Below are positions 5,121 through 63,111 of a stretch of 64,000 nucleotides of DNA, piece after piece. Within the stretch, counting starts at the first letter, position 1. Each line of letters opens with the position of its first letter. The notes under the pieces are model-generated. The model saw only the letters and a list, made by a program, of their open reading frames with translations, was not told the DNA's origin and made no database searches. This DNA comes from Arctopsyche grandis (taxonomy: Eukaryota > Arthropoda > Insecta > Trichoptera > Hydropsychidae): the NCBI RefSeq assembly GCF_051622035.1, contig NC_135360.1, positions 3,345,501 through 3,409,500 on the forward strand, given 5' to 3'. The position numbers were made by a program, and so were the translations under genes.

Positions 5121-5480
5121 AAGTATATTGATTGTTAGTAAGAAATTGCCGATGGCCATGCTTGGGGGTGTTTCGGCCGCACCTGTCAGCTGTCAGTTTA
5201 CACTACGAAATACAACGGTCTCCCATTCAGCGAATATCCCTTTGATTGTACAACGATCCTTAATCTTTTACCCCTTCAAATACCGTCTCCTTGTCAAAAA
5301 TACACTAAGTTCGACGTCCAGCAACATCGTCCTAGCGCTGACTGAATTGCTTTCGAGTTATTTTTATTAATTACTTAATATCTATGATTGGAAATGTTTG
5401 TATATATGCCACCTGATGTCCGCTGTCCACTATCACCTCTCCATTCTCGAGACGTTTGTGTTTCTCCCGTCCAAGTAGCG

Positions 5481-6894: not shown

Positions 6895-6987
6895 AAATAT
6901 GACTTCGGTGTGCACATATAAAAGGCCGGCCTTTTGAACGTGGTTGACGTGCGTCGTTCTGTCTATACTTATTAATTATTAATTAGT

Positions 6988-23340: not shown

Positions 23341-23555
23341 TCTGATTCTCTGATTTTTCAGTTAATTTAGATAATATTAATTATTCATGAGTAAATAAAC
23401 ATTAAATATTGACGGAAAAATAAAATATATTTTGAGAAGTTGTTGCATATTATGTATTTATTCAAACATTTGGATAAATTAAAAATTCAAAAAGTACATT
23501 TAATGATTATTTCAAAATACATTTTTTTCAAATAATACAAAAACACTGCAGTCGA

Positions 23556-25871
23556 TCAAATAATCGAATCATATGGAATGACATTTGCAACTGCATCACT
23601 TCTCTTTCTGCTCAGACTTGTTGAAGCTTTCCAAGATTTGTTCGTCTCGTCGTATTCCCAAACATCACTTAAATAATTTTTTCCATCGAATCCACCTGAA
23701 AATCAAAACAATAAATTAATTCTACATTTAAGACCCATAAATTCAACTTAAGTTGTAAAATAAACTCACCCATGCTAAACAGTTTATTTTGGAAACAGCC
23801 GAGACTGATTCCGGATGCAGCTTGCGTTAGTTTGGTGAATGCAGTCCACACATTTGCATTCGGATCGTAATGCTCCACACTGTCTAAACGTGAAGAAGTT
23901 TGTCTGTCAAATCCACCAGCGACGTAAAGTTTTCCTTGGAATGCGACGCTCTAAAATGGTGAAATCAAAATTTAGTTCATTTTATTTTGGAGAGTTGTAT
24001 ATTATTTGCGATAGTTGTGAATAAAATTAATTGATGTTCACCGAATGATTATATCTTCCCTGAATCATCTGAGCGCGGTAAGTCCAAGAATTGGTCTCCA
24101 CTGAATACATCTGCACTTTATTCGAGGATATGGTTTTTCCGTTTTCACTTGTTTCCCCGCCTGTTATGTATATTTTATCGGCGATGACAGAAGCACTATG
24201 AAAACTTACTGCCATCAACAATGGAGCGATGATCTCCCAATCCCCAGTGTTGCTGCTCCACCTAATCGAAATCAATAATCGTCAACTTCTCTTTCAATCG
24301 ATCTGATGAAATGATTGCAATTTAATCACCTTTCCACTGAAGATAAACAGTCATTATCAAAACCACCAATGGCGTAAACATCCGTGGACGAACCGCGCCG
24401 AAGTGTGACTGCTGAGAAGTCATAACGAGCTTGATTTAATGGCTTCAATGGCTTTTTCTCACCGCTTTTCAAATCGATGTATTCTACCTCCTAAAACAAA
24501 TAAATTGGTTATATTCCGATTTCTCTAAGCAGGTACTTCGCAACACCGGAAAACAAGTTACTGAAGTCACTGTTGCATTTGAAGAATTCCTTCCGCCGAT
24601 GATAAAAATCCAATCTCCCACGAGGACAGACGCAAATTTTTTATTTATTCCAATATTTTTGGATAGAGTCCAACTGTTCTTTAGTCCATCAAATATATCG
24701 ATGGTGTTTGCCATCTGAAAACACGTTATGCAATAAAATAATTAATTTACAATCCAATCAAAATATTATACTTGTGATACAAAACTCACATCTAAAACAT
24801 TCCCCCCAACCAGTGCCATTTTTTGTATTATTCTACGAGGGGTCTCTCTTGGGACGAAAGATTTATCATTCTTGTTTATAATTTCTTGAGTAATAGTAGT
24901 ATAACACTCTGCACATGAAAGACAGAACGTCATTACTTCGTTGACGATAAACTGAAAATATAACACATTATTCGAATGATTTTTATCACTAAACTGCAAC
25001 ATTCATTTAATTTGAAATACCTCCATGGAGAGTAAGGATAACCTCACGAATCTCATCAGCTGTGCCAAGTCACTTTTACGGTTTGCATCATCATGATTTA
25101 CCCACAATTTCACAGCATTGAATACGCTTTCTTCGGAATGCACCAACAAATCATTCGATTTCAAGATTTCCATCAAGTTGAAGAGCGGCAGATTGAGAAA
25201 ACCTTGAGTTTTGTGCAGCTGAAACAGAAGTGGAATTGAAAAATATTTAAATGACATATTTTTTTATATAATCAACACTCACCGTCTCGAAGTTTTCCAA
25301 AGTCAAATCCATTGCCTTTCTTAATAATTCGGAATCGGCCGTTGATTTCAAAACGTTCAGACAATTAGATTTATTGACTGTTTTAAATTGTGGTGGAATG
25401 TTCACTTCCAGTCGGTTGGCTAGCTCCAGTAATTTCTTGCGGTGTTTGTCTCCTATGTCTAAAATTATATTTAAATGATTGCATTTAATGACGAAATCTC
25501 GTATTTGAAATTGATTATTTTAGATATTTATGAACTCGTACTTATTTCTCCAGTGTAACAATACTTTAGGATTGCATCGATGACTTCGTCGTCATAATCT
25601 GAAAAGACGTCATTCAATAGATTTTCTTTTGTCATGAAGATTTCGCTGCACGCCATTAGGACGACCAAGTGCGCTTGGATTCTGCAATTATGAAAAATTA
25701 TAATTAAACTGACAGAACAATTTGGATTTTAAATAATTTTGGATTCGAATTAAGATACTCTCGGCCTCGAACTGCAAATAAGGTGTCGCATTTCTTATTT
25801 AGTTGGAAGGCCTCATACAAATACTCCACTCGTTTTGCAGCAAAATCAGGCTTCGCCTTCACTAGATACAT
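23556..25871 (-). CDS. BTB-BACK-Kelch protein, left copy (KLHL-like, 10 coding exons)
   Basis: Exons (minus): 25871-25759, 25681-25542, 25458-25283, 25218-25021, 24951-24790, 24714-24562, 24490-24330, 24261-24042, 23950-23770, 23695-23556. All have GT/AG borders and matching phases; the total is 1644 nt, 547 residues, with no break. BTB: about residues 15-85 (KCDTLF, AHLVVLMACSEIF, ILKYCYTGEI). BACK: about 100-230 (DLTLENFET, LPLFNLMEIL, VFNAVKLWVNHD). Kelch: six blades marked by ALVGG, FIIGG, YAIGG, YITGG, YVAGG, FSMGG. Proteins of this type bind Cullin-3 through BTB/BACK and present substrates bound to the propeller for ubiquitination. A 5' leader intron with donor at 25975 and acceptor at 25901-25902 precedes the ATG. 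Substrate unknown. Confidence 0.92.
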
Positions 25872-25902
25872 CTTGTTTCTGATTTTCTCTTAGATTTCTC
25901 CT

Positions 25903-26573
25903 GAAAAACAAGATTGAAAATTATATAAAAAGACAATATAACTATAAGTGCTAAGCAAAATAAAGTTCGACTTACCAATTGGAAAGATTAGCAGCGAATG
26001 ATGTGAAGTACTGTCGTTCTGCGGTTATATCTCGATAGATAAGGATATCTCAACCCTTTCGTTGCATTGAAACGTATATTAATTATTTACTGAAATTAAT
26101 TATTTCTCATAAATGCCATGACAGGTGACCAACATACGCGGAATATATAATTGAACTTTAGTTAAGATCAGGGCTGTGGAGTCGGACTCCGACGTTTTGC
26201 TATGATTCCATTCGGACTCGAATATTATAGTATGATCGACATTTCTTGCCAATGCATAAATTATTAAAAATGAAATTTATTTTCGATATTTAAAATATAA
26301 AAAAAATTTAAGGAATTAAAAAAAACCACTAAAAATTACAAAAATATCAAATAGTGATGGCTAAAATTAATAATTTGAACAAAGATGTTGTGTCTTGATT
26401 GCTATTTGGATTGTGATCTATGAAATTTCAATAATTAAATTGTAAAAGCGATATTCACATATTTTGCAGGAATAAAAACAGTTTTTGGAGTTTTTTGAAA
26501 CGAACTTACATGTAAAGGGTTAGCACTTGATTATTTACCCGGATGTGGCATTATACTACACAAAAACATGTTT
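25903..26573. other. 5' flank of the left Kelch gene
   Basis: Holds the leader intron (about 25903-25975) and the probable promoter. From 26150 to about 26570 it is AT-rich with the CAGGGCTGTGGAGTCGGACTCCGAC segment, which also occurs next to the right copy. I see no clear TATA box or coding sequence. Confidence 0.5.
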
Positions 26574-26743
26574 TTACAATAATAACGAAAAACCGCATGG
26601 AAATAACCACTCATACGATATTAAAATAATCGTCTTCTCACAGATAAAACACATTTTGAAATTAAAATTAAGATCATCGATAATAGAATTCGACAAACTA
26701 CTCAAATCCGCCGTGCATATTTTGCACTCAAAAGGAATAAAAT
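26574..26743 (-). CDS. Exon-like Cys-rich frame (CKIC...CFIC...PCGF), left arm
   Basis: On the minus strand, CTTACTTTAG at 26744-26753 is a good splice acceptor, followed by an open frame FIPFECKICTADLSS...FKMCFICEKTIIL...WLFPCGF and a stop at 26574-26576. The spacing of CxxC pairs and the PCG resembles the start of a RING-type zinc finger, but the usual His/Cys after PCG is absent. It lies between the micro-exons and the Kelch gene, in the same orientation. A phase-compatible donor (CATC|GTATGC) exists in the upstream SDSWING exon, so the two could be spliced. Function unknown; it may be an exon remnant. Confidence 0.4.
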
Positions 26744-27229
26744 CTAAAGTAAGCAATTAATAAGAATTATGTATTTAACCGAAAAATGTATTTTCTTCAA
26801 GATATGTAATTTCAATGATAGTGGAAAAACCGCACAAAAAAACAACTGATTATTGAAAATAGCATCAGAATTTTTTCTACTGGATTTAGCTCTTATCTAT
26901 AATATTATATTATATACTAAATGCATTGCTCCAATGCTTACTCATTTTATTTTCGTTTATAAACACGAAAATTCGAACTGGAGATTTTAAATAATGTGTA
27001 TTAAATTTGAGGTCTTCTCTTAAGTTTTTGGATTCAATTGTCTCATAAGCCGCTTAACGGATTGGGATGAATCGTAAAAGTTATGATAGCCCTTTCAAAA
27101 AAGTATAACTGACGCTAACATACATATCGGGTAGTTATTGTATATCTATATATTTAAATGAAAGGAACATGAAAGAAACCTGCAAAGATAAAACGTTTAT
27201 CGACTTGGAAACAATCCAATTTGAATTTG

Positions 27230-27914
27230 TTAGATCAGCATACGATGAAATCCATTTATCCATTTATCCAGCTATCTGAGCTGAAACTGAAATTACAGCT
27301 CAGAATTGATAATATTATGGGAATAATACACATGTGTATGTTAATCGGTGTGACTTACTCAGTTATTGAGGACGCAGCCTCTCCATTGGACCTGAAAGTA
27401 AAGTGATTGTAATTGTAATTGTAATTGTCTACCATCGATATATAATATTAGCAGTTACTACTTACATTTCAGATAGCATGGCCCAGCTCCGATTTTTGTT
27501 TTCAGAACCGCTATCAGAGCTGAAATTTAAATTAATTCGATTAATAACAATATATGTGATTTACTATAAATAATCATACGTATGTATAATAGATATAAGC
27601 AGTTACAACTTACGTTCCGTATAATATGATCGAGGTTCCACTTTTTGTTTCGGAATCACATTCTGAGTTGAAATTTATAAGCGATTGAGATTATTAACAT
27701 ATCCAAGAATTGATAATAATACAGAAACAATATATAAATGAGTTACTCGTTTGACGACGTTGGTGTCTCGATGATGGACCTGAAAGAAAAGTGATTGTAA
27801 TGAAGAATATTGTCAATCATTGCTAAATAATCATACTCGTACATTGAAACTTAAATTTCCGATGGCGATGCCGAGCTTCGACTCTTCATTTCCACACCGA
27901 GCTGATGTTCCAAA
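27230..27914 (-). pseudogene. Micro-exon set A (left arm)
   Basis: Minus-strand segments homologous to set B: 27914-27855 (60 nt, LEHQLGVEMKSRSS), 27779-27747 (33 nt, SIIETPTSSN), 27667-27614 (54 nt, SECDSETKSG), 27519-27466 (54 nt, SDSGSENKNRSWAM), 27391-27359 (33 nt, SNGEAASSIT) and a terminal exon from 27280. All start with 1 nt and end with 2 nt of a codon. Most have TTTCAG acceptors and GTAAGT donors. The 60-nt exon has TT in place of the GT donor, the 27667 exon lacks AG at its acceptor, the terminal exon has an 8-bp duplication that brings an early stop (SDSWING), and no first exon is present: the arm is cut at about 27970 by a repeat. Probably non-functional. Confidence 0.6.
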
Positions 27915-27969
27915 CTGAAATTTAAAAGCGATTGCGATTATTTACATATCCGAAAATTGATATTTATTT

Positions 27970-28240
27970 AAAACTAGCTGAACCCCGGCATGCAATTCCC
28001 GTTCCCGTTCCCGTTCTCGTTCTCATATGTGAAAATTGTAAAATGGTTTATTTTCTAATAATTATATTTTGTTATCGTTTATAATCAATATAAAACTGTA
28101 AATTTTCCAAATAAAGTAACGTTTGGTTATTTTGTTTATTTATTTATTCTCAATCATTGAGAAGATCGAATTTATTTTTCCCTCTATTGATCCATTTAAT
28201 AATAAACGTAATCTTTAAATAACCAAAAATATTCACGAGT
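27970..28240. mobile_element. Unclassified insert with ACTAGCTGAACCCCGG edge
   Basis: Starts AACTAGCTGAACCCCGGCATGC and contains four CGTTCC-type hexamers (about 28003-28024). The ACTAGCTGACCC-type edge with a short hexamer repeat is reminiscent of the 3' ends of RTE-type LINEs or their SINEs, but no protein is encoded. It replaces the first exon expected for micro-exon set A. Confidence 0.35.
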
Positions 28241-28800
28241 GATGGCTAAAATGAACAATCTGAGCTAAGATATTGTGTCTGGATTGGTATTGGGATTTCG
28301 ATTTCTTAAATTTCAAATGATTCCATTGTTAATGCGATATTCATATATTTTCCAGGAATAATAACAGTTTTTCGAGTTTTTTAAAACGAATTTAGGGTTA
28401 AAGGACTAGCGCTAGATTTCTTACACGGATATGACATTAAACCACAGAAAAACATGATTTTACAATAATAATGAAAAACCGCATGGAAATAACCGCTCAT
28501 CCGATATTAAAATAATCGTCTTCTCACAGATAAAACACATTTTGAAATTAAAATTAAGATCATCGATTATTACCAAAGTAAGCAATCAATAATAATTGAT
28601 TAATAACCGAAAAATGTATTTTCTTCGAGATATGTAATTTCAATGATAGTGGAAAAACCGCACAAAAAAACAACTGATTATTGAAAATAGCATCAGAATT
28701 GTTGCTACTGGTTTGAGCTCTTATCTATAATATTATATTATATACTAAATGCATTGCTCCAATGCTAACTCATTTTATTTTCGTTTATAAACACGAAAAA
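28240..28800. repeat. Second, direct copy of the Cys-rich exon region
   Basis: Repeats 26340-26990 in the same orientation with deletions. On minus it keeps DDLNFNFKMCFICEKTIIL...RLFPCGFSLLL (about 28565-28466) but has lost the CKIC half and the acceptor. Confidence 0.7.
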
Positions 28801-28855
28801 CGGATTGGGATGAATCGTAAAAGTTAAGATACATAGGTTGCATATACATACACAC

Positions 28856-31565
28856 CAGTGGCGTATATTGGGTGTGTGCTAGGTGTGCGGCGCACACCCG
28901 TGAAAACCAAAGACCACATAAAGTAGTATTTTAATACAAAATAATGTGTTGTTGTATAAGCAGGCATTGATGTGTATGGTGTATTTACCGCGTGCGCTAA
29001 ATGTATGGTGTATGGTGTGGTGTGCAGTCTGCAGCGTGTTGTGTGATGTTAGATGTAGTTTGTGCGCCGCGACGAGAGAATACCTATGCCGTGCAGCAAA
29101 TTGGTGGGTTTGGTTGGAGTGTGCAGGCGGATATTCGCTTGTATAGGTTTGTTCGCGATATTAAGACGTACGGTGTGCTACGACTTCAGAGCACCGCGCA
29201 ACAGTCGGCAATTGACCAATGCGATGCGACACGTGGTCTCGTACTTTTTCGCACATTCGTATTTTTATGGTCATATTATTACCTCTAATAACTAATAATG
29301 GCTAACAGTGTTCAAGACATTTTAACTATTCCGTTTTCAAATAGAAGTTTTGAGATAAAATTAAAAATAATTAAAGATGGGAAACCGTGTCCGTCTCTTC
29401 CAAATTTATCCAGTTTGCATAAAGAAAAAACAAAAGTTTACACTAGACATTTTTGCGTTTCAAATTATAAAAAATTCGAATGGATTACAGGCTGTGAAAT
29501 TCGATCCAAACTTTTCTGCTGGCCATGTTTATTGTTCTCCAAAGATATTAATGTGTGGAACAAAGAAGGATTTGCTGATCTCAACCATTTGACAGCAGCA
29601 CTGAAGAAACACGAAGGATCGCAGGCACACGTTCAATCATTTCTTTCCATACAAATGTTTGGCAAACAACGAATCGACGTATTAATTGACAGTCAACGTA
29701 AAGCCGAAATAAGTCGACATAATGAACAAGTAAATAAAAATAGAGATGTTTTAAAACGAATTATTAACGCAATAATCTATCTAGGAAAACAAGAACTGTC
29801 CCTGCGAGGTCACGACGAGTCATGTAATTCCGTAAACAAAGGCAATTACATTGAATATCTAAATGCTCTTCGAGAATATGATTCTGTTTTAGATACTCAT
29901 TTAAATACTGCTACTACCTTTCGTGGTACTTCTCCAAGTATACAAAATGACATAATCGAAGCAATCTCTCATGTTATTAAAGTTCATATAAAAAATGAAG
30001 TAGAGTCAGCAAGTTTTGTTGCTATTATTCTCGATGAAACTTCAGATATAATGACAAAATCACAGCTCTCAACAGTTTTACGTTTTGTATGTAAAGGCAA
30101 TGTACATGAACGGTTTATTAGTTTTACAGACGTTAGTGCTGATAAAACATCTAATGGTCTATTCTAATGGTGAACATAGTTGAAGAATTTAAAATTCAAG
30201 ACAAATTGGTTGGACAGACTTATGATGGAGCAAGTGTAATGAGTGGACACGTAAATGGTTTGCAATCCAAAGTCCTCAATGCTTATCCTTTTGCTCTTTT
30301 TACACACTGTTATGCTCATATATTGAATTTAGTATTGCAGCAAGGTCTTTCTGATATTAAAGAAAGTAAATCATTTTTTCAAACTTTAAATGGATTGTCT
30401 ACATACTTTTCAAAATCTTCCAAAAGAGTATTCGCTTTACAGGAATTTGTGACAAAAAGACTTCCCTCTGTAGCACCCACAAGGTGGAATTTTACATCTC
30501 GTTTAAGTAGCACAGTACAACAATACAGAAGTCAATTTACATATTTTTTTTCGACATGTTATAGAAAATTGTGAATTATGGGACACAGATACTGTTATAA
30601 AAGCACGAGGGTTTTTAGGCTTTTTAGAGGATTTTCAAACAATTAAACTTCTTCAATTTTTTTCAAAACTGTTTGGAATAACTGATGTTTTGTATAACAT
30701 TCTTCAATCTAAATCTTCGGACGTTTTATATTGTTGTAAAAAAATTAATGATGTTTTGCAGCAACTGAAATACGAAAGGTATAATAATTTTGAAATGTTA
30801 TGGAATAATTATTTAAATGAAAAAAATGATGATCATGATCGTAGGCCACAAAGATTAAAAAATTATTCAGAAGTAGAAGATAAAACTTCATTTCGTCAAT
30901 TATATTTCAAAATAGTTGATAGCATAATCGCACAAGTCGAATGTAGATATTCTTCACTTTCCAAATTAGAATATTTCCACCTTCTTTGTAATGATAAATA
31001 TGACGAATATAAAGAAAATTTTCCAAATGTTTTAATTAATAAATTAAAAGATTTTTATGGATCACTGTTTGATTATATTCGATTGAAAAACGAACTCATT
31101 GTGCTATATTCCAGCTCTGAATTTTCAGAGAAACCTGTTCATGAATTAATACAATTCATGACAAAAAATAGCCTCGAATCTGGTTTTAAAGAAGTGTTTA
31201 AGCTGGGAGAATTAACATTAACGATACCAAGCAGTACAGCTTCAGCAGAACGGTCTTTTTCGGCGCTGAAAAGAATAAAAACTTGCTATAGAGGTACGCA
31301 AGGTCAAGATAGATTATGTGGCCTTAGCTTAATTTCAATAGAAAAAAAGTTATTGGTGGAATTAAAACAGAAAGACACATTCTATGCAGACGTGATTGAA
31401 AAGTTTATGTCTCAGAAACGTCGCATTGAACTTATGTATAAATAACTAATAAATTAAACATTTTTGTAATGCAAAACGAGTATTTTTTTTTAATTGCTAA
31501 TTTTATACCCTACGCCCTACGGCATACACAGCACACCCGGTATTAACACCCACCGTCCGCCACTG
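28856..31565 (+). mobile_element. Complete hAT element, recent (zf-TTF/ZMYM-like)
   Basis: 2,710 bp. Terminal inverted repeats CAGTGGCG.A....GGGTGTG at the left and, reversed, CAGTGGCGGACGGTGGGTGT at the right. An exact 8-bp target duplication ATACACAC lies at 28848-28855 and 31566-31573. The transposase frame is broken at only about two points. It sits between the inverted-duplication arms. Confidence 0.93.
29298..31445 (+). pseudogene. hAT transposase (TTF zinc finger, DUF4371, hAT dimerisation)
   Basis: Three consecutive frames cover one protein: 29298-30167, 30167-30574 and 30690-31445. The first has the TTF-type zinc-finger region (YTRHFCVSNYKKFEW, CWPCLLFSKD, HEGSQAH) and ILDETSDI, the first catalytic block. 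The second has GQTYDGASVMSG and CYAHILNLVL. The third ends with the hAT dimerisation motif IPSSTASAERSFSALKRIKT. Between 30574 and 30690 recognisable sequence continues in another frame. Family role: cut-and-paste transposition with 8-bp duplications. Two frame breaks make this copy inactive. Confidence 0.85.
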
Positions 31566-31743
31566 ATACACACATATAATATGTATTAGTATAATATTCT
31601 TTAAATATTATTGTCAATTATTGTAAATTTTATGTCAAAATTAAAAATCCCCAAATTCTGCGATCATAAAAAAACATATTTAGTTATATGGTTTTTAACA
31701 GAAAATTTTTCAAAATGTATAAAAAGAATCATTTCCATACATT

Positions 31744-31938
31744 TTAATAACTTTTAAACAAACCAGCACTCCTGGAACTGCCAGGATCGGAAGGTGGAGG
31801 AGGGTCGATCACGATGTTAGTCCTCGGAGTCGGTGCTCTCACACCAGATGTAGACGGAATATCTTCATTGTCTTCTGAGGCCATCACACCTGAAAATAAA
31901 CAAATAAAATCATGTAATTGAGCGGACGTTGAAAGCAT
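31744..31938 (-). other. Exon-like Ser/Pro-rich frame
   Basis: On minus, TTTATTTTCAG (acceptor, ending about 31891) is followed by GTGTG and ATGGCCTCAGAAG, giving MASEDNEDIPSTSGVRAPTP, then NIVIDPPPPSDPGSSRSAG and a stop at 31744. Composition (acidic, Ser/Pro-rich, start with Met-Ala) is like the first exon of micro-exon gene B. It may be a displaced first or last exon of a micro-exon copy, but its phase does not fit the 1+2 pattern without an unseen donor. Confidence 0.35.
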
Positions 31939-31991
31939 GTTAAAACGATTCCATGATTCTTTTTTTTCAGTATATGATGATTAGTTATGAC

Positions 31992-33046
31992 TAGAGACAC
32001 GTATTTTGGGCACTTTGCTATTAATGCTTAATTGATGCTAAAATTCGGAATAGATGCTAATAGATGCTAAATTCGTAAAAAACGCGAATAGATGCTAAAA
32101 TAACAAACAAAAGTGGAATTTGCATAAAATTTATAAAATTAATAGAAAATTTAGAAGGGTCTTCCTATCCCTTTGCCCATTTATTATATGAAGAAATTGA
32201 GGGGATAAAACAGAGCTTGCAGTTTACCATAGACGGTGATTTTCCTGTCGAAACCAAGCAACTGCTTTTGTCTACTACTGTAAAGAAAAGAAGACAGTTG
32301 GAGCTGTGCCTTAAAACTAGACTCGCACTCGAGACTAAATGAGACGAATCTATTCGTCCGAAAATTGAGTAAACTATTCAATCCATCTGTGGCAGGTTCA
32401 AAATCTAATATTAATGTTAAAGAAACAGTTTTGCCATTATTTAATGTATTAACAGAGGCTCAATGTTTGGAAGGATATCAGCACTTTTTTTAGACAATTA
32501 ATAGAGAATATAAAAACATAAAAGAGGTTTGTAAAAAGTGAATCCACACCGGATATATTTCTATTATTGATGGCAATAAAAATTAAATATGAAGAGTTTG
32601 GTTGTGCAGCTCTAAAATCTATTTGGTGTCCCGTCAATAGTGTGGATGCTGAAAGGTATTTTATTAAATACAATGTAATTGTTACCGATCGTCACACGAA
32701 TCTCAAAAAATAGTCTGTAGAAATATGCTCCATGTTGTGTTTTAATAAATTTTAATTGGTACTATATTTTTATATTCATATTTTTATATTTATGTTTTTT
32801 TCAATGTTATTTTAATTTCGAAACATTTTTGAATGTTTTTATTATTTTTTAATTGTTGTGTTGTCTTTAAATTGTATAAACGTGTATACATTTTATTAAA
32901 ATTCATCGAAATTTTTTATTATTTAAAATTAAACTCTTCATAAAAATAGATGCTAAAATTGAACATTTTTAATGCCCTAAAACGCTAAAATGCAAAATGA
33001 AAATGCTAAAATTGACAAAAATAGATGCCCAAAATACGTGTCTCTA
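31992..33046 (-). mobile_element. Short hAT derivative with 8-bp target duplication
   Basis: Ends TAGAGACACGTATTTTGGGCA and its reverse complement, flanked by GTTATGAC at 31984-31991 and 33047-33054. 1,055 bp. The interior has repeated ATAGATGCTAAA motifs and, on the plus strand, FGCAALKSIWCPVNSVDAERYF (about 32600-32665), a hAT C-terminal dimerisation region. A partial, inverted copy ends the window (63112-63799). The transposase frame is broken in several places. Confidence 0.85.
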
Positions 33047-33152
33047 GTTATGACTAATTCTGCATCAACACTACTTACAGAACACAAAATCATACTTCTC
33101 GTATTTAATTTTTGAAGCCATTGACAAAAGTCTCTATTTATATAATACATAT

Positions 33153-33245
33153 TGTAGCGTAGGGGTGGGTTCAGGATTCAAATGAAATGCCAAAGTCGCT
33201 TCACAGCATTTATTCAACGATTCAGGAGGTCCACACGAAATACTT
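33153..33245 (+). repeat. Fragment of the TGTTGCGTAGGGG LTR family
   Basis: TGTAGCGTAGGGGTGGGTTCAG, then CACAGCATTTATTCA, aligns with the first 90 bp of the LTRs at 15963 and 44803. Old and truncated. Confidence 0.6.
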
Positions 33246-33690
33246 GGCTTATTTTTTAGGTTGGGTAATTCCTGCTAATAAAAATGAAATAAAAACGTTA
33301 TTAAAACACATTAATTATCGAAGATATGATCAATAAAGAATGTTACTAAACGATTTTATTTTCTTATTATCCTCCTTTGACATTTTCAAAACCTGGTCAC
33401 CTTAACTAAGAGCTTCTTAAGGCGGGGAGATTTTCCTAAAATAAAGAAAACAGTAAAAGTAATATAACATTATATTAAATCATATTGATGAACTATTGTT
33501 TTTAAATATACATATAAATAACAAGTATTATATTTTTTTACCTTTATATGTTGATATTTACGTTTTGAGTGGAAACAGTGGAAATTTTGATGATAATAAT
33601 GATGTGTATGCCTGGCAGTCAAAATTCTTTTTTGCACAGGAAATAGCACGGGTAAGGATTTCTGTAGGAAATAATATATGTCTAACCCTT
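33246..33690. other. AT-rich spacer
   Basis: No supported gene. On minus there are a few isolated splice-like signals (for example TTTTAG at about 33435 and AAAG|GTAAAA at about 33540), but the segments between them lack consistent phase and carry stops. Confidence 0.3.
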
Positions 33691-33801
33691 TCAAAAACGT
33701 ATAACTGACGCTAACATATCTGGTAGTTATTGTATATCTATATATTTAAATGAAAGGATCCGCCGTCGTTTATAGACATGGAAACAATCCAATAGAATTT
33801 G

Positions 33802-34638
33802 TTAGATCAGCATACGATGAAATCCATTTATCCAGCTATCCGAGCTGAAACTGAAATTATAGTGATTATTAACATATCCCAGAATTGATAATATTATGGG
33901 AATAATATACATGTGTATGTTAATCGGTGTGACTTACTCAGTTATTGAGGACGCAGCCTCTTTATTGGACCTGAAAGTAAAGTGATTGTAATTGTAATTG
34001 TAATTGTCTACCATCGATAAATAATATAAGCAGTTACAACTTACATTTCAGATCGCATGGCCCAGCCACGATTTTTGCTTTCAGAATCGCTATCAGAGCT
34101 GAAATTGAAAATAATTCGATTAATAACAAATTCAAGAACTGATAATAATACAGAAACAATATATAAATATGTATATGTGATTTACTATAAATAATCATAC
34201 GTATAATATATATAAGCAGTTACAACTTACGTTCCGTATAATGTGATCGAGCTTCCACTTTTTATTTCGGAATCACAATCTGAGCCGAAATTTATAAGCG
34301 ATTGAGATTATTAATATATATCCAAGAATTGATAATAATGCAGAAACAATATATAAATGAATTACTCGTTTGATGATGTTGGTGTCTCGGTGATGGACCT
34401 GAAAGAAAAGTGATTGTAATGATGAATATTGTCAATCATTGCTAAATAATCATACTCTTCGACTCTTTATTTCCACACCGAGCTGACTTTTGGAACTTCA
34501 ATTTAAAAGCGGTAGCGATTATTTACATATCTGAGAATTGATAATAATTGATAACGCGTCCAATTCGCAAATTGAGACGTTGCTGTCGCCATTTTCATAT
34601 CTATTTCCATTTCCACTGCCATCGTTCGCGTTGGCCAT
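33802..34638 (-). CDS. Six-exon micro-exon gene B (predicted 99 aa, Ser/Asp-rich)
   Basis: Minus exons: 34638-34556 (83 nt, start MANANDGSGNGNRYENG), 34398-34366 (33), 34284-34231 (54), 34098-34045 (54), 33970-33938 (33), 33844-33802 (43, ending WINGFHRMLI and TAA). The sum is exactly 300 nt in one open frame. Every internal exon begins with 1 nt and ends with 2 nt of a codon, so exons can be skipped or added without shifting the frame. Donors: GTTATC, GTAATT, GTAAGT, GTAAGT, GTAAGT. Acceptors end in CAG, except the 34284 exon, which has CGG. Each internal peptide begins with Ser after the junction (SITETPTSSN, SDCDSEIKSG, SDSDSESKNRGW, SNKEAASSIT). No signal peptide or known domain; probably disordered. 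I do not recognise the family. Confidence 0.55.
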
Positions 34639-34639
34639 T

Positions 34640-35170
34640 TTCAATTGCTCAAATCAAAATTGATCTTTCAAACTCTTCCAACTGAAACATTGTTATTTTG
34701 TCACTTTGACACTTTTCCACTCCACTCGTAACGTTTCCAAATCCGACCATTACCTTATGACTTTTTTTTCCTCTCCTCCACTTAATTAATTCGCAAGTAG
34801 ATCCAGAGTCAATTACAAATGCAATCCAAATAGTTTAAATTTTCCTCCAAAGAAAAAAAATTGCTTTAAAAATCCAAAGTAAAAAAAAAAACTATAAATA
34901 ACGTCAACATTCTTGCATAAACGTAACGTGAAGAGAGGAGGGGGGAGGAATACGATAGTTATAATGGTAATTGGACTATTCGTCACTTTTCCGTGGTCAC
35001 AAAGACATCTTTTGCCATGAAAATTTGGCACTCGAGTTCTCGTTAGTTCAACATATTGGCTACGTCCACACTACCGATATCTACACCCGATATTTAGACA
35101 TTTTTCCATATCCAGTTCCCATATTGCAACCTGTGGTTGCTCTTTAGGAACTGGTTCGTCACTTGCATTG
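34640..35170. other. 5' flank of micro-exon gene B with a dispersed repeat
   Basis: 34960-35050 (GTAATTGGACTATTCGTCAC...TGGCACTCGAGTTCTCGTTAGT) recurs in reverse at about 53690-53800 and partly at 58285-58345, so this is a dispersed element or a shared promoter-derived piece. The rest is AT-rich without coding features. Confidence 0.45.
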
Positions 35171-36760
35171 CTTAAAGGAAGCGTTAAAAATATTCTTAAA
35201 ATTGTTTCAACATTTGGAAACGTTGAAACAATTAATAATTTGTTTTTAAACCTCCAATTAATAATTTATAATTGTCGATATGATTCGAAATATTTTCGCT
35301 TTTGATATGTGCCAATATCATTGTTATATTTTGAAATTATTCTTTCAACACATTGGTTATTAATTTTCAACACATTTGACTTATTTCAAAATTAAAAAAT
35401 AATTGAAAATCTTTAAGCAAACTATCTTAAATTGAGCTCCTTCTTTACACTTCTGAAATTAATGCATCGCAGATAATATTATGAATATTTATTATAAAGT
35501 TTTCTTTTCGAATAAAATTAACTTCATCGCATATCTCTCCAAATTACAATTTTCATTTTTTACGTCTAGTGTCTTAATGTTTATGATTTTCATTTAGAAT
35601 GTTAGCATCTTTTTCAATTTCACCGAATTCATTTCTCGTGTTTTGAATAAATTCTGAAACGGATTTTATCAATCTTGTTCCCAGCAACGAATTGTGCTGC
35701 ATATTTTGTAATGATTTATTTGTAGCATTGATGCGCTGTAACAATTTATCCTACAAAGTATTATAGTTAGTAATGCAGTCTCATATTCATCGAAATAAAC
35801 TGCCAATTTTCTTGCCTCCAGTTTTCCCATAGGTTTTTCAAATACGGACGTACTGATTTTAATAATAGCTTCTTTAATATTTTGATTAAAAAAAAAAACA
35901 GTCTCTGCTCTAGACGTCCATCGCGTACTATTTATTCTTTTTAAATATTGGTTATTCAAAATATGACTTAAAAAAATATTCCATCGTCGAGTCGATGATG
36001 AAAAAAAAACATACAAAGATAAACAACAGATCGCCAATATCTCCGTTGTTTTTTTTTTCTAAGTTTATATCCATACGCCCATTAATTGGTAACCGTTTTT
36101 GGAAAGTTAACATCGATTTGAAATGAGCTGGCGAAGATTCGTGTTCTTTTAATCTACGTGTTATGTTTTTCCAATCGTTAAATCATGTTAACAATTTAGT
36201 TTTAGCTTGTGAAAATAGTTTACATACATAACAATAAATGGATTTGCTTTTTGCGGTTTCTCTATCTATACTCTACTTTTATTTTTTTTACGTATGGCAC
36301 GGTTTACTTATTAAAAAAAAGAATAATTTTTTCATATATATGCTCTGGCCACAATGCTAAATCCATAGGATAATCATTGGGAGCCATTACAGTATCATTT
36401 TTCCTCATTTTCTTTTTCAGAAAACTGTTCTTCAGTACTTTCAGGGGTCTGTACTTCAGACGTTGTAGGATGCTGCTCATTATTTTTTCCAAAGGGGTCT
36501 TCATCAGTTCTTCTAAAGGGCTGCGTTTCGATCCTTTCCATTGGATGGTCTTCGTTCCTTTCAGAGAGCTGCTCATCAGTTCTTCTACAGGGCTGTTTTT
36601 CGGCCCTTTCAAGAGGTTGATATTCATTCCTTTCAGGGAGCTGCTCTTTAGTTCTTTCAGAAGACTGTTCTTCAAGTTGTTCCGATATTCTGCCATTTTT
36701 AATGTAATTCATTAGCGAATTATTTTGTGATTTATCTAGAAATTTATCTAGAAAGGCCAA
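35170..36760 (-). mobile_element. hAT (ZMYM-like) remnant with a coding 24-bp repeat
   Basis: Minus-strand pieces: PMDLALWPEHIYEKIIL (about 36360), the usual start of the domain in ZMYM-type hAT proteins; NNQYLKRINSTRWTSRAETV (about 35940), the Trp motif of hAT transposases; and LARKLAVYFDEYETALL-like sequence (about 35800). In front of this is a 24-bp repeat encoding 8-residue units such as EQLPERNE, EQLSERNE, YQPLERAE, KQPCRRTD (36400-36690), about eleven units. Numerous stops; dead. Confidence 0.6.
36395..36690 (-). repeat. 24-bp minisatellite coding 8-residue acidic units
   Basis: In one minus frame about eleven 8-residue units follow each other, for example SSERTKEQ, LPERNEYQ, LSERNEDH, FRRTDEDP. 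A 24-residue super-repeat (…NE / …AE or IE / …TD) appears at least twice. A second frame is also open over the array, as is common for repeats without stops. Confidence 0.75.
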
Positions 36761-36957
36761 ATAATCGACGACGGTGAGCGCAATTATCGCAAAGCTTTGT
36801 ACTTTACATAAAAAAATGAAAAGAGAAATGCATAGGAATTTCCTAATTATAATTTTTCTCAGAAGGATTTGGAGGCCCCTTAAATTTAGAGGCCACAGAT
36901 ATGCGCCAATTTTGCTGTTCGATAGTCCACCGCTGATTACAACCACTTTTCTTTCAG

Positions 36958-37124
36958 GTCCAATGGAGAGGCTGCGTCCTCAATAACTGAGTAAGTCACC
37001 GATTAACATACACATGTATATTATTCCCATAATATTATCAATTCTCGGATATGCGAATAATCGCTGTAATTTCAGTTTCAGCTCGGATAGCTGGATAAAT
37101 GGATTTCATCGTATGCTGATCTAA
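36958..37124 (+). pseudogene. Micro-exon set C (right arm), last two exons only
   Basis: Exon 36958-36990 (CTTTCAG|G ... CTGA|GTAAGTC, SNGEAASSIT) and terminal exon 37082-37124 (TTTCAG|C, SDSWINGFHRMLI, TAA). Both are in the same phase as sets A and B. The upstream exons are missing, replaced by the hAT remnant at 36760 and below. Confidence 0.6.
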
Positions 37125-37576
37125 CAAATTCAAATTGGATTGTTTCCAAGTCGAAAAACGTTTTATCTTTGCAGGTTTTCTTTCCTGTTCCTTTCATTTA
37201 AATATACAATAACTACCAGATATGTATGTTAGCGTCAGTTTTACGTTTTTGAAAGGGCTATCATAACTTTTATCTATCATGACTTTTACGATTCATCTCA
37301 ATCCGTTGAGCGGCTTATGAGACAATTGAATCCAAAAACTTAAGAAAAGACCTAAAATTTAATACACATTATTTAAAATATCCAGTTCGAATTTTCATTC
37401 AATGCATTTAGTATAAGATAATATTATAGATAAGAGTTAAAACCAGTGTCAACAATCCTTCTTCCATTTTTAATAATCAGTTGTTTTTTTGTGCGGTTTT
37501 CCACTATCATTGAAATTATCTTGAAGAAAATACATTTTTCGGTTATTAATCAATTCTTATTAATTGCTTACTTAAG

Positions 37577-37750
37577 ATTTTATTCCTTTTGAGTGCAAAA
37601 TATGTATGCATGGCGGATTTGAGTAGTTTGTCGAATTCTATTATCGATGATCTTAATTTTAATTTCAAAATGTGTTTTATCTGTGAGAAGACGATTATTT
37701 TAATATCGGATGAGTGTTTATTTCCATGCGGTTTTTCATTATTATTGTAA
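37577..37750 (+). pseudogene. Broken Cys-rich exon, right arm
   Basis: After CTTAAG the frame reads FIPFECKICMHGGFE and stops, because of four extra bases compared with the left copy. The rest (KMCFICEKTIIL...CLFPCGFSLLL) persists in another frame. The left-arm copy is open. Confidence 0.6.
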
Positions 37751-38683
37751 AAACATGTTTGTCTGTAGTATAATGCCACATCCGCGTAAGTTCGTTTCAA
37801 AAAACTAGAAAAACTGTTTTTATTCCTGCAAAATATGTGAATATCGCATTAACAATTCAATCATTTGAAATTTCAGAAATCGAAATCCAAATACCAATCC
37901 AGACACAATATCACTCTTAAATATTTTTGTTTATTTAAAATAAATTAGATCTTCTCAATGATTATGAATAAATAAATAAATAAATTAACTTAACGTTTGT
38001 TTATTTTAACCTTATTTTAATTACCTTAAAAATAAAATCGTTGACTTGCACGTATTTTGATTTGCTTAAATATTTATTTTTATTTCAATTTTTAATCTCA
38101 TTTTTTTATTTAATTGGTATGTTTGTGTATGAAATTCTTATCAATGCACTATGAATGTACTTACTCTTTATTTATACCTATGTATTTCACTACCAATAAT
38201 TCGATAAATTGGGTAAATGGCAATTTAATTCCATTAATTTTTTTTTATATATTTTGTATATCACAATTATTTTAATTTTTAATAATTTTATACGTTGGCA
38301 AAAAAAGTCGATCATACCATAATATAATAATCGAATCATGGCAAAACGTCGGAGTCAGTAAATTCTGATCCGACTCCACAGCCCTGATCTAAACTAAAGT
38401 TCAATTATATATTCCCCGTATGTTGGTCACCTGTCATGGCATTTATGAGAAATAATTAACTTCAGTAAATAATTAATATACGTTTCAAGGCAACGAAAGG
38501 GTTGAGATATCCTTATCTATCGAAATAAAACCGCAGAACGACAGTGCTCCACATTATTCGCTGCTATTCTTTCCAATTGGTAAGTCGAACTTTATAATGC
38601 TCAGCACTTATATTTATATTGTCTTTTTATATAATTTTCAACTTTGTTTTTCTGGAGAAATCTAAGAGAAAATCAGAAACAAG

Positions 38684-40999
38684 ATGTTCGTAGTGAAGGC
38701 GAGTTCCAATTATGCTGCAAAACGGGTGGAGTATTTGTATGAGGCCATGCAACAAGATAAGAAATGCGACACCGCTTTTACTGTTCGAGGCCGAAAGTAT
38801 CTTAATTCGAATTCAAAATTATTTAAAATCCGAATTGTTTCGTCAGTTAAAATTATCATTTTACATAATTGCAGCTTCCCCGCGCACTTGATCGTTCTAA
38901 TGGCGTGCAGCGAATTCTTTGGGACAAACGAAGGTCATGTGGAGAAGATCTTTTCGGATTTTAACTACGAAATCATCGAAGCAATCCTGAAGTATTGTTA
39001 CACTGGAGAAATAAGTAAGAGTTCATAAACATCAAAAGTAATCAATTATTTTCGTCTTCAAATGTAATAATCTGAAATATAATTTTAGGTATAGACGAAA
39101 AGCACGTCGAAAAATTAATGGACCTAGCCACCCGACTGGAAGTAAAAATTCCAAAGCAATTTAAAACAGTCGATCTTTCAAACTGTTTGGAAGTTTTAGA
39201 ATCAACGGGAGATTCCGAATTATTAAAAAAGGCAATGGATTTGACTTCGGAAAACTTCGAGACGGTGAGTGTTGATTATATAAAAAAATATGTTACTTAA
39301 ATATTTTTCAATTCCACTTCTGTTTCAGTTGCACAAAACTCAAGGTTTTCTCAATCTGCCGCTCTTCAGCGTGATCGAAATATTGGAATCGAATGATTTG
39401 TTCGTGTCTTCCGAAGAAAGCGTATTCAATGCTGTGAAATTGTGGGTAAATCATGATGATGCGAACCGTAAAAGTGACTTGGCACAGCTGATGAGATTCG
39501 TGAGGTTATCCTTGATGCCGTTGGAGGTATTTGAAATTAAATTAATGTTACAGTTTAGTGATAAAAATCATTTGATAATGTGTTATATTTTCAGTTTTTC
39601 GCCAATGAAGTAATGACGTTCTGTAATTTGTGTGCAGAGTGTATGACCACTATTAGACAAGAAATTATAAACAAGAATGATAAATCTTTCGTCCCAAGAG
39701 AGACCCCTCGTAGAATAATACAAAAAATGGCACTGGTTGGGGGATGGAGAATTAATGTGAGTTTTGTATAACAAGTGTAATATTTTGATTGGATTGTAAA
39801 TTATTTTATTGCATAACGTGTTTTCAGGAAGCAAACACCATCGATATATTTGACGGATTAAAGAACAGTTGGACTGTATCCAAAAATATTGGCATTAATA
39901 AAACATGGTTTGCGTCTGTCCTCGTGGGATATTGGATCGTTATCATCGGCGGATTAAAATCACAAGCTTTATTGACTTCAGTAACGTTTTCCGGTGTTGC
40001 GAAGTACCTGCTTAGAGATATCGGAATATAACCAATTTATTTGTTTTAGGAGGTAGAATACATCGATTTGAAAAGCGGTCAGAAAAAGCCATTGAAGCCA
40101 TTAAATCAAGCTCGTCGTTCTTTCTCAGCAGTGACACTTCGGCGCGGTTCGTCCACGGATGTTTACGCCATTGGTGGTTATGGTGGAGGCTATTTATCTT
40201 CAGTGGAAAGGTGATTAAATTGCAATCATTTCATCAGATCGATTGAAAGAGAAATTGACGATTATTGATTTCGATTAGGTGGAGCAGCAACACTGGGGAT
40301 TGGGAGATCATCGCTCCATTGTTGGTGGCAGTTTATGGGCATAGTGCTTCTGTCATCGCCGATAAAATATACATAACAGGCGGGCTTACAAGTGAATGGA
40401 TATCCTCGAATAAAGTGCAGATATATTCAGTGGAGACTAATTCTTGGACTTACCGCGCTCAGATGATTCAGGGAAGATATAATCATTCGGTGAACATCGA
40501 TTACTTTTATTCACAACTATCTCAAATAATATACAATTCGCCAAAATAAAATTTTGATTTCACCATTTTAGAGCGTCGCATTCAAAGGGAAATTTTACGT
40601 CGCTGGTGGATATGATTGGGAAACTTCTTCTCGTTTAGACAGTGTGGAGCATTACGATCCGAATGCAAATGTGTGGACTGCATTCACCAAACTAACGCAA
40701 GCTGCATCCGGAATCAGTCTCGGCTGTTTCCAAAATAAACTGTTTAGCATGGGTGAGTTTATTTTACAACTTAAGTTGAATTTATGGGTCTTAAATGTGG
40801 AATTAATTTATTGTTTTGATTTTCAGGTGGATTCGATGGAAAAAGTTATTTAAGTGATGTTTGGGAATACGACGAGACGAACAAATCTTGGAAAGCTTCA
40901 ACTAGTCTAAGCAGAGAGAGAAGATCTTCAGTTGCACATGTCATTCCATATGATTCGATTATTTGATCGACTGCAGTTTTTTTGTATTATTTGACATGA
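38684..40999 (+). CDS. BTB-BACK-Kelch protein, right copy (KLHL-like, 10 coding exons)
   Basis: Exons 38684-38796, 38875-39014, 39089-39264, 39329-39526, 39595-39756, 39828-39980, 40050-40210, 40279-40489, 40572-40752, 40827-40999. They have the same exon sizes and phases as the left copy, except exon 8 (211 versus 220 nt, three residues fewer) and the last exon. Exon 10 has a (GA)n run two bases longer, which replaces the last residues (…VIPYDSII in the left copy) with a different tail and moves the stop to 40997-40999. BTB, BACK and six Kelch blades are all present. Differences from the left copy cluster around the Gly-Gly turns: GGYGGGYL versus GGFDNDCL, GGLTSEW versus GGETSENGKT, GGYDWET versus GGFDRQT. 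The predicted role is a Cullin-3 adaptor with altered substrate face. The leader-intron acceptor AG seen in the left copy is TG here. Confidence 0.88.
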
Positions 41000-41155
41000 A
41001 ATAATCATTAAATGTACTTTTTGAATTTTTAATGTATCCAAATGTTTGAATAAATACATAATATGCAACAACTTCTCAAAATATATTTTATTTTTCGGTC
41101 AATATTTAATGTTTATTTACATGAATAAATAATATTGTCTAAATGAACTGACCGG

Positions 41156-45216: not shown

Positions 45217-45380
45217 TTGCCCCCCTCTTAGGTCAAATCGTCCCGATTGACCAACAAATCCTAACTGATAAATCTACCGTAGTAGTTACATTAATCTCCG
45301 ATATCAGTCACAGTTACATTTACAATTATAGCCGTTATCTTTACAGTGCATACAATAGCGCGTCGTTACAATGGAAACAA

Positions 45381-47601
45381 TTGGACCTGCTGTCAGCTGC
45401 AGGTTTGTTACGTTTCACTTGAACCATTGCTATTGTTAATTCGCTAGTCGTAATCGTCAATACCTTTCTTATTTGCAGGTTAGGAAAGGTGATCATCTGC
45501 CAGATACGATATGCCTTTCTTGTGTCAACAATCTGAAATTGCTCGACAGTTTTCGAAACTCTGGTTGTCAGAATGACACAACGTCGAGGGTGAAATTAGA
45601 CGAGTCTTTGAAAGTCAAGCCGGAGGAAGTTTTGCTGGAAGATTTAATATGGGAAGATGATCTAGGTGCTGATTTGCCACCCAACATATCTAGTTCATCA
45701 AACAATGGCGGGGTAAGTAAATACCATTCGAGTGCCTTGTAACGGTTCTAAGCAAAACATTAAATTAATCGAAAATTAATTAATCATTTACCGTTCAATT
45801 TATTTTTTAGACCTCTGAAGGAAAAATTACTTGGAACGATAATACGGCAGAAATAATAGATACCAATAGACACATTCTAGCGGAACCATTACCAAGAGGT
45901 TTAGATAAAATGTGCTCTATATACATTCTGAATTGGGCCATCAAATAAATATCCAAGACAAGTTTTATACCCATAAACTTATTCTCATGGCTCTGAAAAA
46001 CTCTAATACTCAAATAAAGCCGCATGAATGTGACAATTGTTCAAAGACATTTAATAGAAAAAAGGGTCTCTATGTACACATGAGTGTTCATACAGGGATT
46101 AAATCACACAAATGTGAATTTTGTTTAAAATCATTCCCTTCAAAACCGGAGCTCTGCGTACACATAAGTATTCATAGTGAGGTTAAGCCACACAAATGTG
46201 ATATTTGTTCGAAATCATTCCATTCAAAATTTAACCTCCGTAATCACATGCTTATTCATAGCGGGGTTAAGCCATACAAATGTGACAATTGTTTAAAATC
46301 ATTCTGTTCAAAAGCTAACCTCCGTAATCACATGATTATTCACAGCCGTGCAAAGCCACATAAATGTCACACTTGTTTGAAATCATTCTCTTTTAAATCT
46401 GTACTTTCAAGGCATTTGAAATCACATGCTGGGGACAAGCCACACAAATGTGACATTTGCTTAAAATCATTTGCTCAAAAAAATTACCTTATGATACATA
46501 TGAGATGCCAGTGGCATCTCATATGTATTGTTACGTACGCCGTGGATTTGGCGAATTGTACTTAGACCAACGGATATCTGTTATCGGATTAACTAAATGC
46601 ATGCACTTACTTCCAAAGATTATATCTGGACTCTAAGTGCATTTAGGCTAAACAATGACCGTTATTAGTTATTTCTCAGAATCGGTACGGGGAGACCCAA
46701 TATCGGGGAAATACATATCCGAATACGTGACTATACAACAGGTAAACAGATTAGGCGTCCTGAGAGATCTACCCTTTATAAGGCGGTACGTAGGCGATAT
46801 CAGGTCATTCTGGACTTAACCGTGACACTGCGTGTATCTCCTGAATCATCAATAAATGCTGTGATACGACTATTGGCCTTTTACTTGGATCCTCCACCCA
46901 CCCCTACGTAACAGTATCATAATCTAATTTGAACGGTTTTTCCCCAGAGTGGCATCATGCCACTCTGGGGAAAACCCGTTCAAATGTGATATTTGTTTAA
47001 AATCGTTCATTTCGAAATATGACCTCGACGTACACAATAGTATTCACACTGGAAAAAAGCTACACGAATGTGAGGTTCGTTTCAAAATATTTACTAAAAG
47101 AAAATAGCGTACGAGACATATGATAATACACTCGGGAAAAAAACCTTTCAAATGTGATATTTGTTCAAATGCATTTGTTGATAAAACTTCATTGCAAAAT
47201 ATGACCTCGGTGTTCACATGAGTATTCACACTGGTGTAAAGCCACACAAATGTGAAGTTTGTTTTAAATCATTTACTGTAAAAAGTTACCTTGTGAGACA
47301 TATGAGTCGCCACTCTGGAGAAAAACTGTTCAAATGTGATATTTGTTTAAAATCATTCATTAGTAAACATGATCTCGGTTCACACATAAGTATTCACACT
47401 GGCCTTAAGCCATTCGAATGTAACATTTGTCTAAAATCATTCACTAAAAAATCTTCACTTGCAACGCATTTGACCTCTCACACTGGAGACAAGCCACACA
47501 ATTGTAACATTTGCTTCAAATCATTTACTCTAAAAAGTAGCCTTAAGAGACATATGAGACGCCACTCTGGAGAAAAACCGTTCAAATGTGATGCTGTTTG
47601 A
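45381..47601 (+). pseudogene. ZAD-C2H2 zinc-finger gene 2 (pseudogene)
   Basis: Only the last 22 nt of the first ZAD exon survive (45381-45402); the CRLC half is gone at the junction with LTR-related DNA. Exon 2 (45479-45712, 234 nt) is intact and keeps ICLSCVNNLKLLDSF. Exon 3 starts at 45811, but two extra bases near 45915 (TCTATATACATTC against TCCATACATTC in gene 4) shift the frame into an early stop. Six fingers remain open in 45912-46500. A solo LTR and two palindromes interrupt the array at about 46495-46980; further fingers follow, with four whole ones in 47218-47601 that end FKCDAV-stop as in gene 1. It cannot make the ancestral protein. Confidence 0.85.
46529..46913 (-). repeat. Solo LTR inside ZAD gene 2
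   Basis: Reads TGTTACGTAGGGG...GGCGTACGTAACA on minus and is flanked by a 4-bp target duplication GTAT (46525-46528, 46914-46917). The size is 385 bp. It is inserted in the middle of the finger array. Confidence 0.85.
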
Positions 47602-47619
47602 AAATATTACCTCGGTGTA

Positions 47620-56240: not shown

Positions 56241-56418
56241 AATTGAATTCGCGTGTTTGCTTAGAATCGTAGAAAGCCCACTCGACTCCATCACCAGCAC
56301 CAATTGTGTGTCAACCTGGCAAGACCCTCGACTCCAAACGTCTGAAACGTCTACATCTAGACATCCATTGTCCACTCTCCACTCTCTAGGAGTTTGTGCT
56401 TCTCCTGCCCAAGGAGTA

Positions 56419-63082: not shown

Positions 63083-63111
63083 ATTTTGTGTTTATTCATT
63101 TATTACAATAA

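What the first reader, a model, noticed from the sequence alone, without database searches (positions are those of the whole stretch)
23556..40999. Inverted Kelch gene pair whose differences cluster in the propeller binding loops
Seen: the two 10-exon BTB-BACK-Kelch genes have matching introns and the same blade frameworks, yet differ at the turns after each Gly-Gly pair and in the loops before the next strand. Examples left/right: GGNVLDM/GGWRINE, GGRNSSNATV/GGLKSQALL, GGFDNDCL/GGYGGGYL, GGETSENGKT/GGLTSEW, GGFDRQT/GGYDWET, ARYDF/ARRSF, VSFHS/VYGHS, NKKFAS/NKTWFAS. Known: in Kelch adaptors these loops form the face that holds the substrate. Inferred: the copies are being selected for different targets, as in a conflict-driven or recognition system.
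Basis: partly seen in the sequence, partly recalled or inferred. Interest (0 to 1): 0.88.

Follow-up and report, generated by a model that had tools for sequence, protein, structure and literature searches.

The report
Kelch gene pair with rewritten binding face
Two neighbouring, mirror-image copies of an insect-like Kelch gene have kept nearly the same scaffold and introns but have largely rewritten the loops that in known Kelch proteins hold the target, which suggests that the two copies recognise different partners.

Summary
The pair is real: two intact 10-exon BTB-BACK-Kelch genes, 82% identical in protein, head to head (minus 25871..23556; plus 38684..40966). The first loop is cut by an intron: 12 of 15 exonic bases differ, 2 of 71 intronic ones. 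In K13 these positions are reported as the most conserved of the propeller, so the pattern is reversed here.

Two corrections. For the whole gene, 61 of 100 aligned amino-acid differences lie in BTB-BACK. And loop dN/dS above 1 depends on the yardstick: 2.48 with a shared silent rate, 10.7 against introns, 0.86 with the loops' own silent rate. Positive selection is likely but unproven from two sequences.

Both copies also lack about six residues where KLHL3 docks CUL3, so a standard ubiquitin-ligase role is uncertain. Pea aphids are known to have about 200 kelch paralogs. The species of the window and further relatives could not be identified.

The parts
23556..25871 (-). Left BTB-BACK-Kelch gene, coding part, 10 exons: 25871-25759, 25681-25542, 25458-25283, 25218-25021, 24951-24790, 24714-24562, 24490-24330, 24261-24042, 23950-23770, 23695-23556; 547 aa
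   Evidence: Exons, splice borders and translation; Pfam
38684..40966 (+). Right BTB-BACK-Kelch gene, coding part, 10 exons: 38684-38796, 38875-39014, 39089-39264, 39329-39526, 39595-39756, 39828-39980, 40050-40210, 40279-40489, 40572-40752, 40827-40966; 544 aa
   Evidence: Exons, splice borders and translation; Pfam
24790..24801 (-). Left copy, exon-5 part of the first BC loop (NVLD); the next codon (M) opens exon 6 at 24714-24712
   Evidence: Coordinates by arithmetic from the exons; 12 of 15 bases differ between the copies
39745..39756 (+). Right copy, exon-5 part of the first BC loop (WRIN); the next codon (E) opens exon 6 at 39828-39830
   Evidence: Coordinates by arithmetic from the exons; 12 of 15 bases differ between the copies
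24715..24789 (-). Left intron 5, inside the first BC loop
   Evidence: 2 of 71 aligned bases differ from the right intron 5
39757..39827 (+). Right intron 5, inside the first BC loop
   Evidence: 2 of 71 aligned bases differ from the left intron 5
23358..26320 (-). Left arm of the inverted duplication (gene with close flanks)
   Evidence: 88.8% identical to 38224-41151
38224..41151 (+). Right arm of the inverted duplication (gene with close flanks)
   Evidence: 88.8% identical to 23358-26320
40632..40798 (+). 167-base identical tract, exon 9 into intron 9 (left: 23890-23724), possible local conversion
   Evidence: Longest identical run; reached in 2 of 5000 permutations for exons 4-10 and 0 of 5000 for exons 6-10

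Best explanation
The two genes are functional paralogs from an inverted duplication. Each encodes a BTB-BACK-Kelch protein whose six-bladed propeller should bind a target through its BC and DA loops. Since the duplication, selection has changed the binding face of one or both copies while keeping the blade framework, so the copies most likely bind different targets. Shown: intact genes, conserved framework, loop-centred change that stops at exon borders. Inferred: that these loops bind targets here (from KEAP1 and KLHL3), that the targets differ, and that positive selection was the driver. Open: repeated point substitution or replacement of short exon segments; and whether the proteins act as CUL3 ubiquitin-ligase adaptors, since the docking segment is shortened.
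For: Face 30/95 changed codons vs 9/195; 0/294 circular shifts and 0/20,000 permutations reach the count. Framework omega 0.19, face 2.48 with a shared silent rate (face against 1: p = 0.0024). With the rate fixed to introns 5-9, face omega 10.7 (against 1: p = 1.7e-31). Face codon positions 1+2 41/190 vs introns 5-9 10/364. First BC loop split by intron 5: 12/15 vs 2/71, p = 2.5e-10. The right face has 4 Trp, the left none. BC and DA loops make the substrate pocket of KEAP1 (PMC4668279, passages). In K13 these positions are the most conserved, and the pocket is also a conserved patch in KEAP1, KLHL2, KLHL3 and KLHL12 (PMC6650413, passages).
Against: With a separate silent rate for the loops omega is 0.86 and that model fits better (p = 0.0017; free rate against intron rate p = 6.5e-7). 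Whole-gene omega 0.71-0.76. On the intron yardstick the framework looks neutral (omega 0.75, against 1 p = 0.36; positions 1+2 9/390, p = 0.82 against introns), so introns may be a poor neutral standard. BTB (omega 2.19) and BACK (1.90) also exceed 1 on that yardstick, so the signal is not unique to the loops. Fourfold sites near changed codons are raised (17/125 vs 1/58). Only two sequences; loops were assigned by me from the Kelch motif, not from a structure of these proteins.
Confidence: 0.6

Rival explanations
1. Old duplicates, partly homogenised. The copies are older than the 3' half suggests; gene conversion between the arms has overwritten introns and framework there, while loops and BTB exons kept the old divergence. 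No omega above 1 is needed.
For: Silent divergence of the face (dS 0.264) is close to that of exons 1-3 (0.275). Free-rate omega is 0.86 for the face and 0.79-0.92 for BTB. Identical tracts are longer than chance, up to 167 bases. Introns 1-3 differ at 20/214, introns 4-9 at 14/432.
Against: Intron 5 lies inside the most changed loop, yet differs at only 2/71: a conversion tract would have to end at both exon borders. Even this model needs selection, or luck, to spare the loops.
Confidence: 0.25
2. Segment switching. Short exon segments coding for the loops were replaced as blocks, from other paralogs or by an unknown process, as proposed for snake toxins (ASSET). The functional outcome would be the same as in the best explanation, but the changes would be few events.
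For: Of 30 changed face codons 16 are hit at two or three bases; face differences are even over codon positions (21, 20, 21); 3 of 12 face loops carry length changes; silent changes are raised near changed codons. In the toxins, switched exon segments lie beside introns of more than 85% similarity (PMC2711939, passages).
Against: 14 of the 30 changed face codons differ by one base, and 13 of the other 16 need at least two hits for the amino-acid change itself. No donor was found; none could be sought, as no insect genome is held. A DNA donor patch over the first BC loop would have to skip intron 5.
Confidence: 0.3
3. Relaxed constraint: the loops are simply free to change and have drifted.
For: Face omega near 1 with its own silent rate (0.86); BTB likewise (0.79-0.92).
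Against: Face positions 1+2 differ 41/190, introns 10/364; the surface loops of the other side (AB, CD) differ at only 2 of 37 codons; free drift gives no reason for change to stop at the borders of intron 5.
Confidence: 0.12
4. Two haplotypes of one gene, misjoined in inverted orientation during assembly.
For: Intron divergence in exons 4-10 is low (14/432). No reads are available to check.
Against: Exons 1-3 differ at 18-20% of bases and the 5' flank at 56/465, and the upstream stretches recur in several orders, which fits real duplication.
Confidence: 0.04

Closest known systems
Pea aphid kelch expansion (about 200 lineage-specific paralogs, PMC2826372; 286 additional genes compared with Diuraphis noxia, PMC4561433)
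   Same: Duplicated insect-like kelch genes, here beside repeated zinc-finger genes; kelch and zinc-finger families are both named among the largest pea aphid expansions (passages)
   Different: The species of the window is unknown, so membership is not shown. The passages seen say nothing about divergence of the binding face.
KEAP1/KLHL3-type CUL3 substrate adaptors
   Same: BTB-BACK-Kelch order and blade landmarks that align with KEAP1
   Different: The target face is the most changed part of the propeller. About six residues of the KLHL3 docking segment are missing, and there are gaps before the BACK core.
Nematode and plant F-box and MATH-BTB adaptor families (Thomas 2006)
   Same: Expanded ubiquitin-ligase adapters reported under adaptive evolution and proposed to recognise foreign proteins (seen only as cited in PMC4063957, passages)
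   Different: Kelch propeller instead of MATH or F-box; no infection or target data here. Thomas 2006 itself is not held.
Snake toxin families with accelerated segment switch in exons (ASSET)
   Same: Block-like change of surface-coding exon segments beside similar introns (PMC2711939, passages)
   Different: A BTB-BACK-Kelch protein, not a venom toxin; only two copies compared

Membership tests
BTB-BACK-Kelch (KLHL) family | BTB, BACK and Kelch domains in this order | tested here: met
   Both proteins pass the Pfam cut-offs for BTB, BACK and Kelch_1
BTB-BACK-Kelch (KLHL) family | Six blades with a Gly-Gly at the end of strand B, closed by a C-terminal strand A | tested here: met
CUL3 substrate adaptor | Helix alpha3 and phi-x-E motif as in KLHL3 (A77, M78, M83-S84-E85; PMC3616122, passages) | tested here: not met
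   Net gap of six residues over KLHL3 CAMFTGD in both copies. Right: Thr at the phi position; left: M54 with one extra residue before the Glu. The Glu (E57) is kept in both. Sequence only; the Miz-1 BTB aligns there with a single-residue gap, so a short segment occurs in other BTB domains.
CUL3 substrate adaptor | 3-box hairpin at the start of BACK | tested here: inconclusive
   Gaps in both copies just before the KLHL3 HPTNCLGI stretch; the SNCL core is present
Aphid kelch expansion | Descent from the aphid-specific radiation | not testable with these tools
   No insect genome collection is held; no relatives found in bacterial/archaeal or viral collections
Positively selected recognition family | dN/dS above 1 at binding-face sites | tested here: inconclusive
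   2.48 (shared t), 10.7 (intron t), 0.86 (own t)

The most novel reading that the evidence does not exclude
The genes belong to a germline repertoire of intracellular Kelch recognition proteins in an insect: the BC/DA face is a hypervariable region on a constant scaffold, rewritten block by block within exons, and the CUL3-docking end has been remodelled too, so that the repertoire sorts or sequesters its targets rather than ubiquitinating them in the KLHL way.
Probability: 0.2. Interest if true: 0.8.

Novelty: new variant of a known kind. Interest (0 to 1): 0.52.

Why it matters
Pea aphids are reported to carry about 200 lineage-specific kelch paralogs (PMC2826372, passage); the passages seen give no role for so many. 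If the pattern found here, a constant framework with a changed target face, holds across such a family, the expansion would be a recognition repertoire whose targets (plant, symbiont, virus or self) could be sought directly. The pair is also a natural loop-swap experiment on one scaffold.

Tried and rejected
Relatives: protein scans of genome contigs and viral contigs, two DNA patterns in viral contigs and a tblastn of the right BTB-BACK part (238 of 544 aa) in phages found none; none of these collections is meant to hold insect genomes. No further copy of the genes in the window by tblastn or blastn (only weak stray hits and pieces of the upstream repeats). The sigma-70 promoter scan does not suit a eukaryote and was not used. 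No terminal repeat with target-site duplication was found for the hAT-like insert in a simple search. Whole-gene dN/dS was set aside as a test because the domains differ. Growing or shrinking the loops by one residue leaves the result standing (p = 8.6e-9 and 3.1e-7). Dropping the three gapped loops (DA1, BC2, BC4) leaves 22 of 69 against 9 of 195 (arithmetic). Species: not identified. An aphid is a guess from memory and from the literature on kelch and zinc-finger expansions; no call shows it. Literature: no listed row is on selection in aphid kelch genes by its title or shown abstract (one search found 0 papers; one search listed 15 of 36); passages were read in three of the papers. Subscription journals and preprints are mostly not held, so this is no proof of absence.
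Full report
What is there. The window is eukaryotic and insect-like: AT-rich, with transposon frames and repeated zinc-finger genes. No whole genome is held for it. Two genes lie head to head in an inverted duplication: left on the minus strand 25871..23556, right on the plus strand 38684..40966. Each has ten coding exons; the nine introns (64-91 bases) are at matching positions with GT-AG borders. The proteins have 547 and 544 residues and are 82% identical. Both carry BTB, BACK and Kelch domains above the Pfam cut-offs. The arms 23358-26320 and 38224-41151 are 88.8% identical. No further copy of the gene is in the window.

Loops against framework. I divided the six blades into strands and loops by one rule from the Kelch landmarks (Gly-Gly, Tyr, Trp). 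BC and DA loops form the substrate surface in KEAP1 (PMC4668279, passages) and the bottom face with the shallow pocket in K13 (PMC6650413, passages). Face: 95 aligned codons, 30 with amino-acid change, 7 synonymous only, plus 5 gap columns. Rest of the propeller: 195 codons, 9 and 8. Fisher p = 1.3e-9 for amino-acid change; synonymous-only codons do not differ significantly (p = 0.26). Loops of the opposite face (AB, CD) have 2 of 37. Counting gaps, 35 of 44 differences fall in the face; none of 294 circular shifts (mean 14.8, highest 33) and none of 20,000 segment permutations (mean 14.9) reach 35. The high shifts are expected, as the blades repeat. Changes lie in BC1 to BC5, DA1 to DA3 and DA6; DA4 and DA5 have none and BC6 has one.

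Selection tests. In a pairwise codon model with one silent rate for the propeller, framework omega is 0.19 and face omega 2.48 (two omegas against one: p = 6e-17; face against 1: p = 0.0024). With its own silent rate, face omega is 0.86 (against 1: p = 0.69) and framework 0.33, and this model fits better (p = 0.0017). With the rate fixed to introns 5-9 (10 of 364 bases), face omega is 10.7, but a free rate again fits better (p = 6.5e-7). On that yardstick the framework is 0.75 (not different from 1, p = 0.36), BTB 2.19 and BACK 1.90. So the loops diverge far beyond the introns, part of the excess is silent, and the intron yardstick raises the whole coding part. Fourfold sites differ at 17 of 125 within 15 bases of an amino-acid-changing codon and at 1 of 58 beyond (p = 0.014); intron sites equally close differ at 4 of 126. 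The most telling place is the first BC loop, which intron 5 cuts: 12 of 15 exonic bases differ, 2 of 71 intronic ones (p = 2.5e-10). The change respects the exon borders, which argues for selection on the protein, or for an exon-limited process.

Of 100 aligned amino-acid differences 61 are in BTB-BACK, 46 of them in exons 1-3 (143 codons). There too codon positions 1+2 (48 of 286) exceed introns 1-3 (20 of 214; p = 0.018), while free-rate omega is 0.79-0.92. The 5' half is older or less homogenised: introns 1-3 differ at 20 of 214, introns 4-9 at 14 of 432; the 5' flank at 56 of 465. A 167-base identical tract in exon 9 and intron 9 (2 of 5000 permutations reach it over exons 4-10) fits local conversion.

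The output end. Aligned with KLHL3 (chain 4hxi_A), both copies have a net gap of six residues over CAMFTGD. It covers A77 and M78, where single substitutions severely disrupted CUL3 binding (PMC3616122, passages). The phi residue is Thr in the right copy; the glutamate is kept in both. The proteins are therefore not filed here as CUL3 adaptors, though they may still work like them by another contact. The Miz-1 BTB aligns with only a one-residue gap there, so short forms of this segment exist.

Mechanism. Best reading: the copies were retargeted by selection on the binding face. Rivals: an old pair homogenised by conversion except in loops and BTB; segment switching as in snake toxins (PMC2711939, passages); relaxed constraint; an assembly artefact (unlikely). 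The even spread of face differences over codon positions (21, 20, 21) and 16 multi-hit codons of 30 fit repeated hits or block replacement better than a few single steps; 14 of 30 are single-base changes. The two faces also differ in kind: 4 Trp on the right, none on the left.

What is known. Pea aphid has about 200 lineage-specific kelch paralogs (PMC2826372, passage), and 286 additional kelch genes in the comparison with Diuraphis noxia (PMC4561433, passage). Kelch-associated genes are named among genes up-regulated in bacteriocytes of two aphids (PMC10067822, passage). Adaptive evolution of ubiquitin-ligase adapters is reported for nematodes and plants (Thomas 2006, seen only as cited in PMC4063957). 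In K13 the DA and BC loop positions are the most conserved of the propeller, and the pocket was predicted as a conserved patch also in KEAP1, KLHL2, KLHL3 and KLHL12 (PMC6650413, passages). A pair in which exactly these positions are the most changed of the propeller is therefore unusual.

Limits. The functional step (different targets) is inference.

Noticed in passing
25542-25681 (-) and 38875-39014 (+): Both Kelch copies lack about six residues of the KLHL3 CUL3-docking segment, so the usual ubiquitin-ligase output may be lost or altered.
   Followed up: partly
26339-27974, 28109-28835, 33683-34555, 36936-38006: The stretch upstream of the genes recurs about four times in both orientations (about 80-88% alike in the longer matches), more often than the genes do; perhaps relics of further duplications or a repeat element.
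   Followed up: partly
29292-31445: hAT-like transposase (DUF4371 and Dimer_Tnp_hAT) spread over three overlapping reading frames in the spacer between the genes; it appears frameshifted.
   Followed up: partly
5388-6911, 45378-47618, 56326-57967, 61083-62807: Four clusters of zinc-finger genes: similar starts (83-97% to one copy; zf-AD match just under the Pfam cut-off in the one copy tested) followed by C2H2 arrays. Another locally duplicated family.
   Followed up: partly
567-3556: Two 291-base direct repeats, 99% alike, flank a frame with a retrotransposon gag match just above its cut-off: looks like a short, recent LTR element.
   Followed up: partly
36395-36979 (-): Open frame of 194 codons with degenerate repeats at 24- and 72-base spacing upstream of the right Kelch gene.
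   Followed up: no
31977-32683 and 63107-63814: Another inverted repeat pair (90-94% alike in its pieces) between the spacer and the right end of the window.
   Followed up: no
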